Assembly: GCF_000735345.1 (NCBI RefSeq)
Contig: NZ_JMPJ01000065.1
Coordinates: 248,001-312,000 of the forward strand
Direction of reading: 5' to 3'
DNA: 64,000 bases
Source: Ewingella americana ATCC 33852
GTDB lineage: Bacteria; Pseudomonadota; Gammaproteobacteria; Enterobacterales; Enterobacteriaceae
Shown one piece after another: positions 39,802 to 44,178 of this stretch. The notes beneath the pieces are model-generated. The model was not told the DNA's origin. It did no database searches and saw only the letters and a list, made by a program, of their open reading frames with translations. The number at the start of each line of letters is the position of its first letter. Within the stretch, counting starts at the first letter, position 1. The position numbers and the translations under genes are program-made.

Positions 39802-39831
39802 AAAGCCAAGCCCGCCGGGGAACGGCGGGCT
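39801..39831 (-). terminator. terminator of the MXKDX gene
   Basis: AGCCCGCCG (39809-39817) pairs with CGGCGGGCT (39823-39831); on the minus strand it is followed by TGGCTTTTTA. Confidence 0.6.
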
Positions 39832-39880: not shown

Positions 39881-40159
39881 TTACTGGCTCATCGCGTCTT
39901 TCTTCATGCCATCTTTACTCATAGAATCTTTGCTCATGGAATCCTTACCCATGCTGTCTTTTTTCATGTGATCTTTAGACATACAGTCTTTACCCATCGA
40001 ATCTTTACCCATAGTGTCTTTACCCATGCTGTCTTTCTTCATGCAGTCGTGGGACATCTTGCCCATGGTGTCTTTAGACATAGAGTCAGCAGCCTGAGTC
40101 ACGCCAGCGAAGCCCATCATTACGGTAGAGAACATCAGAACAGTCATCAGCTTTTTCAT
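39881..40159 (-). CDS. periplasmic methionine-rich MXKDX repeat protein (MrpX-like)
   Basis: 92 residues. A Sec signal peptide ends at TQA (residue 23). The mature part is about 69 residues with 14 methionines (20%). From residue 40 to 90 methionine falls on every fifth position in M-[G/S/K]-K-D-x units. It also has two Cys (39, 59) and two His (37, 64). The type is known as pentapeptide MXKDX repeat protein. In Azospira suillum a similar periplasmic peptide, MrpX, is oxidised by hypochlorite and repaired by a molybdenum methionine sulfoxide reductase. The next genes upstream encode such an oxidoreductase and a cytochrome partner. AAGGAAATACC precedes the start. Metal binding is an alternative role. 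Confidence 0.88.
   Translation of the reverse strand: MKKLMTVLMFSTVMMGFAGVTQAADSMSKDTMGKMSHDCMKKDSMGKDTMGKDSMGKDCMSKDHMKKDSMGKDSMSKDSMSKDGMKKDAMSQ
39890..40042 (-). repeat. 15-bp tandem coding repeats (MXKDX)
   Basis: About ten imperfect 15-bp units encoding M-x-K-D-x. The units vary at synonymous and non-synonymous positions, so they are not a recent expansion. It is a coding repeat, not a CRISPR array. Confidence 0.85.
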
Positions 40160-40183
40160 GGTATTTCCTTTTTTTAAAGTAGT

Positions 40184-40197
40184 TGCACAGTTGTGCA
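40184..40197. promoter_or_regulatory. 14-bp palindrome upstream of the MXKDX gene
   Basis: TGCACA-GT-TGTGCA, 25 bp upstream of the start codon. It may be an operator or part of the leader; no regulator can be assigned. Confidence 0.4.
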
Positions 40198-40231
40198 GGT
40201 AAGGTTCACGTTCAACTTCTTATTAATTAAC

Positions 40232-40375
40232 TCGGGCCGAAGGCCGTTATTGTTGCAGCCAGTTTGGACACGGCCAGCGCGGAAAAACCGGAGCGTACAC
40301 GTAGTACGTGAGCCAATTCATCCAAAAAAAGTGAGCACTGCCCGGGTTCAAAATGGCAAATAAAATAGGCCTTTT
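40232..40375. repeat. probable dispersed intergenic repeat
   Basis: The stretch between the oxidoreductase and MXKDX genes has features I associate with a family of repeats found between genes in Enterobacterales: a segment reading toward CTGGCTGCAACAATAACGG on the minus strand, a central palindrome CACGTAGTACGTG (near 40299-40311), and the segment CACTGCCCGGGTTCAAAAT. I see only this one copy in the window, so repeat status rests on memory of the pattern. Confidence 0.45.
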
Positions 40376-40376
40376 T

Positions 40377-41180
40377 TTAACTCCCGCCGTACCAGTTGTA
40401 GCCTTGATCCTCCCAATAACCTCCGGTGAACTTATTGGTAATTTCAATCACTTCGATATGCTTTGGATTCTTGTAGCCAAGCTTGGTTGGCATACGCAAT
40501 TTCATCGGGAAACCGTATTTACGCGGCAGGATTTGCCCGTCGTAAGTCAGTGCCAGCAGGGTCTGCGGGTGCAGCGCGGTTGCCATGTCGATACTGGTGT
40601 AGTACTCGTCAGCACACTTGAAGCTGACATATTCCGCCGTCAGGTCAGCGCCAATCAGTCGCAGGAAATCGCCAAACGGCACGCCGCCCCATTTACCAAT
40701 TGCGCTCCAGCCTTCGACACAGATGTGGCGAGTGATCTGACTGACCTGTGCCATTTTGTACAGCGTCGCCAGTGACCATTCGCGTTTATCCAGCGCCAGC
40801 CCGGCGATTTTCAGGCGATAGGTATTGCCATCTACCTCGGGGGCGTCGTCCTCGGCGTAAAACGCGTTGAACGGGAAAGGTCGGGTTATCATCGATTCGG
40901 CATAAACCGGGGCCAGCCGGGTAGAGCCAAACAGCCAGCCCTGCACTCGGTCATTAAAGGTGGAGACGGTGTTCAAGGCTTTCTCAACCCCGGCGTTATC
41001 ACTGATATCGCAGCCGGTCAGCATCGCCATGCCGCCCAGCGTCAGCCCTTGCTGCAAGAAGCGACGGCGCGATGGGGCGTCGAGGTGGCGAATAATCTGC
41101 TTCTGCGCCTCCTGCACGATGACCTGAGTGTCTGAAGGCGTGAAAATCTGATTGATGCTCTTTTTAAAAATGTTCTTCAT
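40377..41180 (-). CDS. Tat-exported molybdopterin oxidoreductase (MsrP/YedY1-like)
   Basis: 267 residues of the sulfite-oxidase/MsrP fold. A Tat signal RRRFLQQGLTLGG starts at residue 38 and ends in MLTGC (Cys57), which is also a perfect lipobox with Asp at +2. The molybdenum ligand Cys154 is in TRHICVEGWSAIGKWGGVPF. The family uses Mo-molybdopterin to reduce periplasmic methionine sulfoxide. It is shorter than E. coli MsrP (334 residues) and resembles the YedY1 type. It lies 9 bp after a membrane cytochrome b gene, the likely electron donor, and upstream of the methionine-rich MXKDX gene. I infer a repair system for oxidised periplasmic methionines. Confidence 0.86.
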   Translation of the reverse strand: MKNIFKKSINQIFTPSDTQVIVQEAQKQIIRHLDAPSRRRFLQQGLTLGGMAMLTGCDISDNAGVEKALNTVSTFNDRVQGWLFGSTRLAPVYAESMITRPFPFNAFYAEDDAPEVDGNTYRLKIAGLALDKREWSLATLYKMAQVSQITRHICVEGWSAIGKWGGVPFGDFLRLIGADLTAEYVSFKCADEYYTSIDMATALHPQTLLALTYDGQILPRKYGFPMKLRMPTKLGYKNPKHIEVIEITNKFTGGYWEDQGYNWYGGS

Positions 41181-41189
41181 GACCTTTCC

Positions 41190-41831
41190 TCAGCGTCCGC
41201 GCAGCATCGCCAGCAGCGTTTTCGGCACCAGCGCCACCATCACCAAATGCACGGCAACAAATCCCACCAGCGAAGCCATCGCGAAAAAATGCACCACGCG
41301 GGCCGTGTCAACCCCCCCTAACAACTCTCTGAGCAGGGGAAACTGCACCGACTTCCACACCACCAGCCCTGACAGCACCAGCACGATGCCGTCGAGCATG
41401 ACGAAGACATAGGCCGCGCGCTGCACCATGTTGTAGTGGCGCAAATCGGCGTGAGCCAGCTTGCCGCGCAGCGCCGCGCTTAAGTCTCGCAGCACGCCCC
41501 TTGGGGTCAGCGGCCAGAATTTGCGTTTCATCCGGCCAGTGACAATATTCATCAGCAGGTAAAACACGCCGTTAAAACCAAACAGCCACATTCCGGCGAA
41601 GTGCCACTGTAAGCCGCCTCCCAGCCAGCCGCCGAGGGTCAGGCTGCGGGAAAATTCAAAATCAAACAGTGGCGAGGCGTTATAAATTTGCCAGCCGCTG
41701 GTGACCATAATCAGCACCGCCAGCGCATTCAGCCAGTGGCACAGACGCAGCCACAATGGGTGGACAATCTCTGTCTTGGCCTTGTTTTGCTGCGGCTCAC
41801 TCTGCGGTGAGAAGTCGGTATGTAGTGTCAT
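41190..41831 (-). CDS. cytochrome b561-type membrane protein, electron donor to the Mo enzyme
   Basis: 213 residues with four to five membrane helices. Conserved histidines suited to haem binding lie in PLWLRLCHWLNAL, QWHFAGMWLFGF, VVHFFAMASLVGF and VAVHLVMVALVPK. It is of the cytochrome b561/Ni-hydrogenase type and not the MsrQ (YedZ) type. I chose ATG 41831 because GAG is near it and it places the first helix normally; an upstream TTG/GTG region would add 22 odd residues. The gene is co-transcribed with the oxidoreductase (9 bp gap). It is divergent from the two-component system, which suggests control by that system. Confidence 0.85.
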   Translation of the reverse strand: MTLHTDFSPQSEPQQNKAKTEIVHPLWLRLCHWLNALAVLIMVTSGWQIYNASPLFDFEFSRSLTLGGWLGGGLQWHFAGMWLFGFNGVFYLLMNIVTGRMKRKFWPLTPRGVLRDLSAALRGKLAHADLRHYNMVQRAAYVFVMLDGIVLVLSGLVVWKSVQFPLLRELLGGVDTARVVHFFAMASLVGFVAVHLVMVALVPKTLLAMLRGR

Positions 41832-41985
41832 TTTTTGTTTCTCACTCGCCCTGTCGATGAAGCCAGTATTGAGCGGATTTGTTCCCCAAGACCTCACGCA
41901 AAGTTAAATAAAATGTGATAACTCTGAGTAAGCCGCTTGTGTAGACTGCTACTCATACCCTCCCCTCCCCGCAGGCTCGACAGAG

Positions 41986-42708
41986 ATGGAAAAACCCAAA
42001 AAGATTTTGATCGTGGAAGACGACAGCAACATCGCCGAGCTGCTCAATCTGCATTTACGCGATGAAGGCTATGAAATAACTCACGCCGCCGATGGCAATC
42101 TGGGCGTCGCGCATTTAGAGAAAGGCGGCTGGGACGCGCTGATTCTGGACCTGATGCTGCCCGGCGTTGACGGACTGGAGATTTGCCGCCGCGCCCGCAA
42201 CATGACGCGCTACACGCCGATCATCATCATCAGCGCCCGTTCCAGCGAAGTGCATCGCGTGTTGGGGCTGGAACTGGGTGCCGACGACTATTTGGCGAAA
42301 CCCTTCTCTATGCTGGAGTTGGTGGCGCGGGTCAAAGCGCTGTTCCGCCGTCAGGAAGCCATGAGCCGCAATATGAAGATGGACGCCGGAACTCTGAGCT
42401 TCTCCGGGCTGGTCATTGACCCGATTGCCCGCGAAGTGGCGTTGAACCAGCAGCCGGTAGAACTGACGCCGCGCGAGTTCGATCTGCTTTACTTCTTCGC
42501 CAAAAATCCCGGCAAGGTGTTCTCGCGCCTGAGCCTGCTCAATCAGGTGTGGGGCTATCAGCATGAAGGCTATGAACACACGGTGAACACCCATATCAAC
42601 CGGCTGCGTATCAAGATTGAAAGCAACCCGGCGGAGCCAGAGCGCATCCTGACCGTCTGGGGAAAAGGCTATAAATTCACGTCGTCAGCGGAAGACGCGC
42701 AAGGATAA
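41986..42708 (+). CDS. OmpR-family response regulator
   Basis: 240 residues. The receiver domain has the acidic pair in IVEDDSN, the phosphorylated Asp in ALILDLMLPGVDGLE, and the Lys in YLAKPFSMLEL. The C-terminal OmpR winged helix (LTPREFDLLYFFAKNPGKVF, then NTHINRLRIKIE, GKGYKF) binds DNA. The histidine kinase follows 3 bp downstream. It is divergent from the cytochrome-oxidoreductase genes, its likely targets. Confidence 0.95.
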   Translation: MEKPKKILIVEDDSNIAELLNLHLRDEGYEITHAADGNLGVAHLEKGGWDALILDLMLPGVDGLEICRRARNMTRYTPIIIISARSSEVHRVLGLELGADDYLAKPFSMLELVARVKALFRRQEAMSRNMKMDAGTLSFSGLVIDPIAREVALNQQPVELTPREFDLLYFFAKNPGKVFSRLSLLNQVWGYQHEGYEHTVNTHINRLRIKIESNPAEPERILTVWGKGYKFTSSAEDAQG

Positions 42709-42711
42709 ATC

Positions 42712-44178
42712 ATGAGTAAAATGACGCTTTCGCAACGACTTACGCTGGTTTTTATTCTGCTGCTGCTGGCCTGCTCGGTGATTTCTGGGGTGATGCAAGT
42801 GCGCTCCAGCGACAGATTCAGTCAGGCGGTTATTCAACGTTTGTCTGCCAATTTAGCAACGCAGATTGCCGCCAATAACCCCTTACTGAGCCAGAACGGC
42901 TTAGATCCCAACGCGGTACACAACCTGTTTAACCAGCTGATGGCGGTGAACCCGAGCGTTGAGGTTTACCTGCTCGACAGTGAAGGCGACATCGTCGGCA
43001 ACGCGGCGCCTGCGGGAAAACTGCTGCGCCAGAAGATAGATTTAACGCCCGTTCACGAGCTGCTTAACGGTAAAACCATGCCAGTGTATGGCGACAACCC
43101 GCGCACCACCGACCAGCGGCAGGTGTTTAGCGCCGCACCGCTCAAATCCAATGGCGTGCTCAAAGGCTATGTCTACATCGTGCTGCTGGGTGACGACTAC
43201 ACGGCGCTGGCCAGTAAGGCGGAGTACCAGTCGGCCATTTATATGGCGGTGCGGTCTATGGGGATGGTGGTGCTGTTTGGCCTGCTGGCCGGGGCGCTGG
43301 CCTTCCGCTGGGTCACGCGACCGGTGCGTAAACTCACGTCGCAAATCGCCAAGCTGGACGATGGCGGCATGGAGGCGATTCAGGCGTTAGCGAAAACCCA
43401 GCCGCCGGTCGGGCAGCAGAAAGATGAAGTGGCGCAGTTGCAGCAGGCGTTTGTCGGGCTGGCAAAACGCATTGACCAGCAGTGGCAGAGCCTGACCGCG
43501 CAGGACCAGCAGCGCCGCGAGTTTATCGCCAATATTTCGCACGATCTGCGCACTCCGCTGACCTCGCTGCATGGCTATCTGGAAACCTTGTCGATGAAGG
43601 CAGACCGCCTGAGCGGCGACGAGCGCCAGCGTTATCTCGACATCGCCCTCGCCCAGAGCCGCAAAGTGGGGCGGCTGGCACAGGAGCTGTTCGAGCTGGC
43701 GCGACTGGAATATGGCGTGGTGAAACCGCAGAAAGAGCCGTTCTCACTGTGCGAGCTGGTGCAGGATGTGTTCCAGAAATTCGAGCTCGCCGCCGAGGCG
43801 CGCGGCCAGAAACTCAATGCCGACATTATGCCGGATATTCCGCTGGTGAACGCCGACTTGGGGATGATTGAACGGGTGCTGACCAACCTGCTAGACAACG
43901 CCCTGCGCCACACGCCAGAGGGCGGCACCATCAATGTCCGCCTGTGGAAACAGGCTCACGAAGTGATGGTGCAGGTGAATGACAGCGGGCCGGGCATTGC
44001 GCCAGAGTTAAAAGCTAATCTTTTTGTACGGCCTTCAATTCTGAGCACCAATAAACACCGCGCAGGGGGCCTCGGCCTGATGATTGTGCGCCGCATTTTG
44101 CAACTGCACGGCAGCGATATCGAACTGCTCGACCAGCCGCACAGCGGCGCCAGCTTCCAGTTCGCGGTGCCGCTTTAG
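42712..44178 (+). CDS. sensor histidine kinase
   Basis: 488 residues. A first membrane helix (about 10-28), a periplasmic sensor of about 145 residues, a second helix (about 180-200), then HAMP (WVTRPVRKLTSQIAKLDD), a phospho-accepting His in FIANISHDLRTPLTSLHGYL and the ATPase boxes NLLDNALRHTPEGG and NDSGPGIAPE. The periplasmic part has no cysteine, so oxidant sensing by disulfide is unlikely; methionine oxidation is possible. It acts with the response regulator encoded just upstream. No family name is certain. Confidence 0.93.
   Translation: MSKMTLSQRLTLVFILLLLACSVISGVMQVRSSDRFSQAVIQRLSANLATQIAANNPLLSQNGLDPNAVHNLFNQLMAVNPSVEVYLLDSEGDIVGNAAPAGKLLRQKIDLTPVHELLNGKTMPVYGDNPRTTDQRQVFSAAPLKSNGVLKGYVYIVLLGDDYTALASKAEYQSAIYMAVRSMGMVVLFGLLAGALAFRWVTRPVRKLTSQIAKLDDGGMEAIQALAKTQPPVGQQKDEVAQLQQAFVGLAKRIDQQWQSLTAQDQQRREFIANISHDLRTPLTSLHGYLETLSMKADRLSGDERQRYLDIALAQSRKVGRLAQELFELARLEYGVVKPQKEPFSLCELVQDVFQKFELAAEARGQKLNADIMPDIPLVNADLGMIERVLTNLLDNALRHTPEGGTINVRLWKQAHEVMVQVNDSGPGIAPELKANLFVRPSILSTNKHRAGGLGLMIVRRILQLHGSDIELLDQPHSGASFQFAVPL

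What the first reader, a model, noticed from the sequence alone, without database searches (positions are those of the whole stretch)
39881..44178. Methionine-rich repeat peptide, Mo-dependent reductase, cytochrome b and two-component system form a candidate hypochlorite scavenging module
The window shows a periplasmic peptide with Met at every fifth position, a Tat-exported MsrP/YedY1-fold enzyme with its Mo-ligand Cys, a four-helix cytochrome b and a divergent two-component system. In Azospira suillum a peptide of this kind (MrpX) with YedY1/YedY2 scavenges hypochlorite under an extracytoplasmic sigma factor; in E. coli the HprSR two-component system controls MsrPQ. This locus combines the MrpX-type cycle with two-component control. 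I infer that Met in the peptide is oxidised, then repaired by the Mo enzyme using quinol electrons through the cytochrome b.
Basis: partly seen in the sequence, partly recalled or inferred. Interest (0 to 1): 0.8.

Follow-up and report, generated by a model that had tools for sequence, protein, structure and literature searches.

The report
OrhRK-type periplasmic methionine oxidation-repair module
This is a relative of a gene set already described in Escherichia coli that seems to soak up oxidants with a methionine-studded peptide and repair the damage with a molybdenum enzyme; the added finding is evidence that its control switch is widespread and also sits before a second set of methionine-repair genes in Pseudomonas.

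Summary
The five genes match, in order and orientation, the E. coli OrhK/OrhR-c3566-c3568 locus (Gu 2021, PMC8550376), so an MrpX-like peptide with a Mo enzyme under two-component control is in print. There the inducers tested were tert-butyl hydroperoxide and macrophage oxidants; I saw no hypochlorite test.

Corrections: the cytochrome is b561-type (PF01292), not MsrQ-type (PF01794). The Mo enzyme misses the MsrP model cut-off (72 of 207 bits). It carries a Tat motif plus a lipobox, kept in 79 of 80 relatives.

Additions: (1) a 25-bp operator (41894-41918), one base off the published OrhR repeat, stands before the cytochrome gene in 37 of 38 loci with linked OrhRK, 26 of 31 with OrhR elsewhere, 0 of 11 without OrhR. 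(2) In 27 of 31 genomes with unlinked OrhR, orhR is divergent from msrB; 9 of 9 examined have an operator there. (3) Around the operon itself MsrB lies in 8 and MsrA in 13 of 80 loci.

Methionine-sulfoxide repair is therefore well supported; peptide oxidation, the signal and the electron path remain inferred. New member of a known kind.

The parts
39881..40159 (-). Met-rich MXKDX pentapeptide-repeat periplasmic peptide (MrpX/C3568-type)
   Evidence: TIGR02953 66.6 bits, cut-off 41; Met periodicity; a peptide hit near the Mo gene in 77 of 80 relatives
40377..41180 (-). Molybdopterin oxidoreductase with Tat motif plus lipobox (C57, Asp at +2); C154 the expected Mo ligand
   Evidence: PF00174 99 bits; below the MsrP cut-off, 72.3 against 207 bits; lipobox in 79 of 80 relatives
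41190..41831 (-). b561-type (Ni_hydr_CYTB) membrane cytochrome b, presumed quinol-to-Mo electron carrier
   Evidence: PF01292 83 bits; conserved His; a PF01794 search of the genome finds one match, on contig C17 beside a PF00174 gene, not here
41894..41918 (-). OrhR-type operator TCACA-N15-CGTGA
   Evidence: only site in the genome as a 30-base pattern at up to 3 mismatches; conserved upstream of relatives; published candidate repeat TCACA-N15-TGTGA upstream of c3566, within a fragment bound in gel shift
41986..42708 (+). OrhR-type OmpR-family response regulator (D55)
   Evidence: PF00072 and PF00486; 68% identical to an E. coli plasmid relative
42712..44178 (+). OrhK-type sensor kinase, two hydrophobic helices, PAS/Cache-like periplasmic domain, H277
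   Evidence: PF00512, PF02518, PF00672; helices; 51% to an E. coli plasmid relative; sensor fold only a weak match
39809..39831 (-). terminator-like hairpin after the peptide gene
   Evidence: 9 pairs, 8 G-C; 3 sites found in the region, 2.5 expected by chance

Best explanation
The locus is an OrhRK-controlled envelope methionine oxidation and repair module. Proposed working: oxidants in the periplasm activate OrhK (inferred); phosphorylated OrhR binds at the 25-bp operator and switches on cytochrome b, Mo enzyme and peptide (promoter-fragment binding and kinase/regulator-dependent induction are published for the E. coli relative; here inferred from the conserved operator). The peptide with Met at every fifth position is oxidised first and acts as a sacrificial sink (inferred; reported for Azospira MrpX, cited in papers I saw). 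The Mo enzyme, exported by Tat and probably lipid-anchored on the inner membrane, reduces Met sulfoxide in the peptide and perhaps in other periplasmic proteins, with electrons from quinol through the b561-type cytochrome (inferred from the families, the 9-bp gene spacing and the linked MsrA/MsrB genes).
For: Same gene order, orientation, phospho-sites and operator as the E. coli loci and as published for OrhKR. Peptide and Mo enzyme co-occur 7 of 7 in 295 order genomes, always adjacent, and in 77 of 80 loci found through the Mo enzyme. Operator upstream of the cytochrome gene in 37 of 38 linked, 26 of 31 unlinked-OrhR and 0 of 11 OrhR-less loci. orhR divergent from msrB in 27 of 31 unlinked genomes, with an operator between in 9 of 9 examined, a twin-arginine motif in the MsrB leader in those 9 and MsrA following in all 6 whose longer stretch was read; family assignments by Pfam. 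MsrB in 8 and MsrA in 13 of 80 loci close to the operon itself. Lipobox in 79 of 80.
Against: No biochemistry. The Mo enzyme misses the MsrP cut-off and weakly matches sulfite dehydrogenase models. The window genome has a single operator site, so the MsrAB link comes from relatives, not from this organism. Operator and OrhR presence make only 1-2 independent contrasts on the tree. The residue after the lipid Cys is Asp in the 28 Enterobacterales-type loci and one Pigmentiphaga locus, Asn in 25 Pseudomonas, Ser/Thr/Val in 25 others (tally), so inner-membrane retention is a guess outside Enterobacterales. Five unlinked-OrhR loci (L019, L027, L043, L067, L077) and one linked locus (L084) have no operator at up to 7 mismatches.
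Confidence: 0.8

Rival explanations
1. The Mo enzyme and cytochrome repair periplasmic proteins in general, as MsrPQ does, and the Met-rich peptide is a separate oxidant buffer that is not the enzyme's main substrate.
For: In UPEC, deletion of c3566 or c3567 sensitises cells to tert-butyl hydroperoxide. The window genome has a Mo+cytochrome paralogue on contig C31 without a peptide hit in the stretch held, and 3 of 295 order genomes carry such a second Mo copy, so the enzyme pair can exist without the peptide.
Against: A peptide stays near the main Mo gene in 77 of 80 loci and in 7 of 7 order genomes.
Confidence: 0.3
2. The peptide binds copper, silver or another soft metal through Met, and the two-component system is a metal sensor.
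For: Heavy-metal kinase and regulator models match (TIGR01386 161.8 bits, TIGR01387 162.8 bits) but below their cut-offs of 292.55 and 279.2; Met-rich periplasmic peptides can bind Cu(I) (recalled).
Against: The genes sharing the operator or flanking the operon that I identified are methionine sulfoxide reductases; a Mo reductase and a quinol cytochrome stay unexplained; the published inducer of the E. coli relative is a peroxide.
Confidence: 0.07
3. The Mo enzyme works on a small S- or N-oxide or on sulfite, and the peptide is an accessory.
For: Same superfamily as sulfite dehydrogenases (SorA model 48.3 bits, cut-off 600); solved sulfite oxidases are among the matches.
Against: MsrP is the best specific model and 1xdq the best solved match (deposited as bacterial sulfite oxidase, YedY/MsrP by recall); linkage with peptide and MsrA/MsrB.
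Confidence: 0.08

Closest known systems
OrhK/OrhR-c3566-c3568 of uropathogenic E. coli CFT073 (Gu et al. 2021, PMC8550376; abstract, found passages and sections 6, 9, 10, 11, 12 read)
   Same: Gene order, divergent two-component pair, phospho-His and phospho-Asp, operator repeat, cytochrome-Mo-peptide operon
   Different: In CFT073 a hemolysin operon follows and is cotranscribed; in the window an aminotransferase gene and a solute-binding-protein gene lie beyond the peptide. Window proteins are 48-68% identical to the two E. coli copies fetched. CFT073 itself was not fetched.
MrpX/YedYZ with SigF/NrsF in Azospira suillum (Melnyk 2015; paper not held, known here from a passage of PMC4623255 and from citations)
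   Same: Met-rich peptide plus YedY-type enzyme and cytochrome
   Different: Sigma/anti-sigma control instead of a two-component system; the Azospira proteins were not compared by sequence
BcrXQP of Brucella melitensis (PMC8315932, abstract and passages seen)
   Same: MXKDX peptide plus MsrQP-like pair, induced by HOCl
   Different: ECF sigma/anti-sigma control; not compared by sequence
MsrPQ-HprSR of E. coli (passages of PMC10151825 and recall)
   Same: Periplasmic Mo Met-sulfoxide reductase with membrane haem protein and two-component control
   Different: No peptide; MsrQ belongs to PF01794 (recalled); the window genome has a PF00174/PF01794 pair of its own on contig C17

Membership tests
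OrhK/OrhR-c3566-c3568 module | Order peptide-Mo-cytochrome divergent from regulator-kinase | tested here: met
OrhK/OrhR-c3566-c3568 module | Inverted repeat TCACA-N15-TGTGA upstream of the cytochrome gene | tested here: met
   TCACA-N15-CGTGA in the window, one base off; exact in E. coli ATCC 25922
OrhK/OrhR-c3566-c3568 module | Regulator Asp55 and kinase His278 | tested here: met
   D55 and H277 in the window; D55 and H278 in both E. coli copies
OrhK/OrhR-c3566-c3568 module | Peroxide induction through the kinase and regulator | not testable with these tools
   needs expression data
MXKDX repeat peptides (TIGR02953) | Score above curated cut-off 41 | tested here: met
   66.6 bits
MsrP equivalog (NF003767) | Score above curated cut-off 207 | tested here: not met
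   72.3 bits
MsrQ (Ferric_reduct, PF01794) | Cytochrome belongs to PF01794 | tested here: not met
   PF01292 only; the genome's one PF01794 match lies on C17
HprR regulator (NF008567) | Score above cut-off 353 | tested here: not met
   153.4 bits
SigF/NrsF-controlled MrpX loci | Adjacent ECF sigma and NrsF genes | tested here: not met
   A two-component pair is there instead. Among OrhR-less relatives, the four sigma candidates tested are sigma factors (L070, L073, L075, L080) and the two NrsF candidates tested are NrsF (L070, L075)
MrpX sink function | Peptide oxidised in vivo and reduced by the Mo enzyme | not testable with these tools
   biochemistry needed

The most novel reading that the evidence does not exclude
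OrhRK is not a uropathogen virulence switch but an old, widespread regulator of periplasmic methionine-sulfoxide repair in beta- and gammaproteobacteria. Through one conserved operator it commands two parallel reducing routes: quinol to a b561-type cytochrome to a Tat-exported, membrane-anchored Mo lipoprotein with a sacrificial peptide; and a thiol-dependent route of Tat-exported MsrB with MsrA, in about half of the genomes read with a thioredoxin/DsbD-like partner.
Probability: 0.5. Interest if true: 0.55.

Novelty: new member of a known kind. Interest (0 to 1): 0.4.

Why it matters
It places a system known from a uropathogen's pathogenicity island in ordinary environmental bacteria, suggests that the hemolysin link there is a local add-on, and gives an operator motif by which OrhR targets can be read off genomes. 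Joint control of a quinol-fed and a thiol-fed Met-sulfoxide repair route would make it testable why cells keep both.

Tried and rejected
Metal-binding reading: considered; none of the co-operator or flanking genes I identified supports it. HprSR/MsrPQ membership: rejected by curated cut-offs and by the cytochrome family. Idea that Pseudomonas loci use another regulator: not supported, an OrhR relative (411-430 bits) lies elsewhere in 25 of 25 Pseudomonas genomes searched. Invariant M77 of the kinase sensor (38 of 38) as a redox switch: left open; it may be structural, and my pattern did not find that stretch in the E. coli chromosomal copy L131. Sensor fold: AlphaFold mean pLDDT 74, pTM 0.60; best match a PAS domain (E 2e-4), with CodY hits also near the top: only suggestive. 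Operator against OrhR with kinship: 1 pair on supported branches, 2 on the best tree, no power; the Fisher p of 1e-6 ignores kinship.

Recount (nine genomes with unlinked OrhR): a relative of the L125 protein adjoins msrB in 5 of 9 (G295, G296, G300, G302, G305) and is absent in 4 of 9 (G297, G298, G299, G301). Its DsbD_TM match in L125 is 25.4 bits, below the cut-off of 27.1, and L130 shows only thioredoxin-type domains. For this I lowered the novel reading from 0.55 to 0.5. I also read section 11 of PMC8550376: the chemical used in vitro was tert-butyl hydroperoxide, which the authors treat as H2O2 stress.

Counting notes. Left out of counts: L001-L003 and L088-L091 (own genome) and L004-L007 (annotated records). 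'Peptide 77 of 80' includes L086, where it lies upstream on the other strand; L019 ends just after the Mo gene and is uninformative; L043 and L077 lack a hit. 'msrB 27 of 31' was read by eye from the tables (divergent, under about 1 kb); exceptions L019, L026, L027, L067. The order sample also has 6 genomes with peptide-model matches below the cut-off and no such Mo enzyme. 'OrhR absent' means no match at E 1e-70 or, for L075, a best of 200.8 bits; L046 has a 272-bit match and was counted as absent. Of the 13 loci with MsrA, 4 (L073, L075, L078, L082) are OrhR-less; the 8 with MsrB all have linked OrhRK. In one search, 12 genomes were searched: the nine unlinked ones have two sites each, Enterobacter-type L036 one, Polaromonas L075 none, and Serratia L015 two, of which the second (3 mismatches) was not looked into. 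Operator shuffles: 60 mononucleotide shuffles per locus, best 7 in one locus (L076) and 8 or more in the rest.

Literature. The Azospira paper (PMC4436054) is not held. Seen as passages only: PMC8315932, PMC4623255, PMC3420878, PMC12846084, PMC10151825, PMC7464077; other papers as search listings. That OrhR in Pseudomonas or an OrhR-MsrAB link is not in print rests on searches of the held open-access library, with capped listings; it may exist elsewhere. Exported MsrA/MsrB beside mrpX in perchlorate islands (PMC4623255) and ECF control of an exported Msr with DsbD-like partners in Bradyrhizobium (PMC3420878) are in print.
Full report
What is there. On the minus strand, in transcription order: cytochrome b (41831-41190), Mo enzyme (41180-40377), Met-rich peptide (40159-39881); divergent on the plus strand: response regulator (41986-42708) and kinase (42712-44178). 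Cytochrome and Mo genes are 9 bp apart, Mo and peptide genes 217 bp; a terminator-like hairpin follows the peptide gene, though such sites are no rarer in shuffled sequence. The peptide passes TIGR02953 and its Met spacing is far beyond chance: 12 of 13 steps are 5, never reached in 100,000 shuffles.

Families. The Mo enzyme is PF00174; its best specific model is MsrP, at 72 bits against a cut-off of 207, so it is a relative rather than MsrP itself. The cytochrome is PF01292, not PF01794, the family I recall for MsrQ. The window genome has a PF00174/PF01794 pair on contig C17, most simply its msrPQ, and a third PF00174 gene with a b561-type cytochrome on C31, with no peptide, two-component or operator hit in the stretch held. 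The Mo enzyme's N-terminus reads SRRRFLQQGLTLGGMAMLTGC-D: a Tat motif followed by a lipobox. All 80 relatives contain the other search pattern GGYWEDQ, and 79 of 80 have an [ST]GC lipobox. The next residue is Asp in the Enterobacterales-type loci, which by the rule I recall for E. coli keeps a lipoprotein in the inner membrane; it is Asn in Pseudomonas and mostly Ser or Thr in the others.

It is a known system. E. coli carries the same layout: a plasmid copy (L004) and a chromosomal copy in ATCC 25922 (L131; its cytochrome gene is annotated as frameshifted). Identities of the window proteins to L004 are Mo 67, cytochrome 58, kinase 51, regulator 68, peptide 49%; to L131 Mo 63, kinase 49, regulator 64, peptide 53%. 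L131 has kinase His278, regulator Asp55 and an exact TCACA-N15-TGTGA, the features published for C3564/C3565 of CFT073; CFT073 itself was not fetched. Gu et al. report that the regulator binds a 260-nt promoter fragment holding that repeat, that the promoter is induced by tert-butyl hydroperoxide and inside macrophages in a kinase- and regulator-dependent way, and that c3566 and c3567 protect against tert-butyl hydroperoxide; they already compare c3568 with MrpX. Of 5426 complete E. coli genomes, 349 have a match to the Mo-cytochrome pair, 287 places on chromosomes and 75 on plasmids.

Co-occurrence. In 295 genomes drawn from the window's order the Mo enzyme occurs in 7 (E at most 1e-60); the peptide model over its cut-off occurs in the same 7; in all 7 the two are neighbours by coordinates. 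All 7 belong to the window's own family. Six further genomes have peptide-model matches below the cut-off and no such Mo enzyme. Among 80 loci found through the Mo enzyme in named genomes, 77 have a peptide hit and 38 an adjacent two-component system.

Operator. TCACATTTTATTTAACTTTGCGTGA occurs at 41894-41918 and, as a 30-base pattern, nowhere else in the genome at up to 3 mismatches. A copy with at most 7 mismatches stands upstream of the cytochrome gene in 37 of 38 loci with linked OrhRK; 60 shuffles of each upstream stretch gave 8 or more at best in all loci but one (7, L076). It also stands there in 24 of 25 Pseudomonas loci that have no OrhR gene nearby. That predicted an OrhR elsewhere: one is found at 411-430 bits in 25 of 25 Pseudomonas genomes, while the next-best regulators in the eight listed in full score 180 bits or less. 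Over all 42 loci without linked genes: operator in 26 of 31 with OrhR and 0 of 11 without. On a tree of the Mo enzyme these states cluster and give only 1-2 independent contrasts, so the association is consistent but not independent of kinship.

Second target. In eight Pseudomonas genomes and Bordetella genomosp. 13 the operator search returned two sites each: one before the cytochrome gene and one just upstream of orhR. The gene divergent from orhR there is an MsrB whose leader has a twin-arginine motif in 9 of 9 (PF10518 over its cut-off only in the one L125 case). MsrA follows in 6 of 6 longer stretches, and a thioredoxin/DsbD-like gene adjoins msrB in 5 of 9. MsrB lies divergent to orhR in 27 of the 31 genomes with unlinked OrhR; Citrobacter L026, Edwardsiella L027 and L067 and Rahnella bruchi L019 are the exceptions. 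In 8 loci with linked OrhRK an MsrB, and in 13 loci (4 of them OrhR-less) an MsrA, lies close to the peptide operon itself. I found no report of an OrhR-MsrAB link in the held library. Exported MsrA/MsrB beside mrpX in perchlorate islands (PMC4623255, passage) and ECF control of an exported Msr with DsbD-like partners in Bradyrhizobium (PMC3420878, passages) are in print.

Alternative regulators. Eleven loci lack OrhR and the operator. The four sigma-factor candidates upstream of the cytochrome that I tested are sigma factors (L070, L073, L075, L080) and the two NrsF candidates tested are NrsF (L070, L075), as described for Azospira in PMC4623255. The other loci were not tested.

How it most likely works. 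In print for relatives: promoter binding, peroxide induction and protection (E. coli); HOCl induction (Brucella); hypochlorite scavenging by a Met-rich peptide (Azospira, cited). Shown here: conservation, operator, co-operator or neighbouring MsrA/MsrB, lipobox. Inferred: which oxidant OrhK senses, that the peptide is the enzyme's substrate, the electron path quinol-b561-Mo, membrane anchoring.

Verdict. The added value is the regulon: one operator before both the Mo/peptide operon and, in Pseudomonas and Bordetella, a thiol-dependent MsrB-MsrA operon.

Noticed in passing
L001 (own genome contig C31), 1465-2887: A second Mo enzyme plus b561-type cytochrome pair with no peptide, two-component or operator hit in the stretch held; 3 of 295 order genomes carry such a second Mo copy.
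   Followed up: partly
L125 3234-6323, L126 5475-6754, L127 7236-8504, L128 4838-6120, L129 4680-5980, L130 7160-10625: MsrB and MsrA genes divergent from orhR in Pseudomonas and Bordetella, with an OrhR operator between; thioredoxin/DsbD-like gene between them in L125 and L130 only.
   Followed up: yes
L007 (Klebsiella variicola 6.4-kb plasmid) and L006 (Yersinia ruckeri plasmid): Cytochrome-Mo-peptide genes on a very small plasmid with an IS3 transposase, and on a plasmid between IS6 transposases, without the two-component genes: the unit moves.
   Followed up: no
window 40160-40376: The 217-bp Mo-to-peptide gap holds a palindromic stretch (GTACACGTAGTACGTGAG) with one more copy in the genome at 2 mismatches; in Rahnella L005 the gap is about 50 bp.
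   Followed up: partly
L131 2632-3230: The cytochrome gene of the E. coli ATCC 25922 copy is annotated as frameshifted; left as it is.
   Followed up: no
window 39881-40159 and peptides: 22 of 27 enterobacterial-type peptides carry Cys after my rough signal cut (e.g. KDCM, HDCM); 5 of 24 Pseudomonas rows do, but by eye those Cys lie in over-long starts or signal sequences.
   Followed up: partly
L071 1526-1550 and 6363-6387: The Bordetella genomosp. 2 contig holds two copies of operator, peptide and MsrB about 4.8 kb apart: tandem duplication or assembly effect.
   Followed up: no
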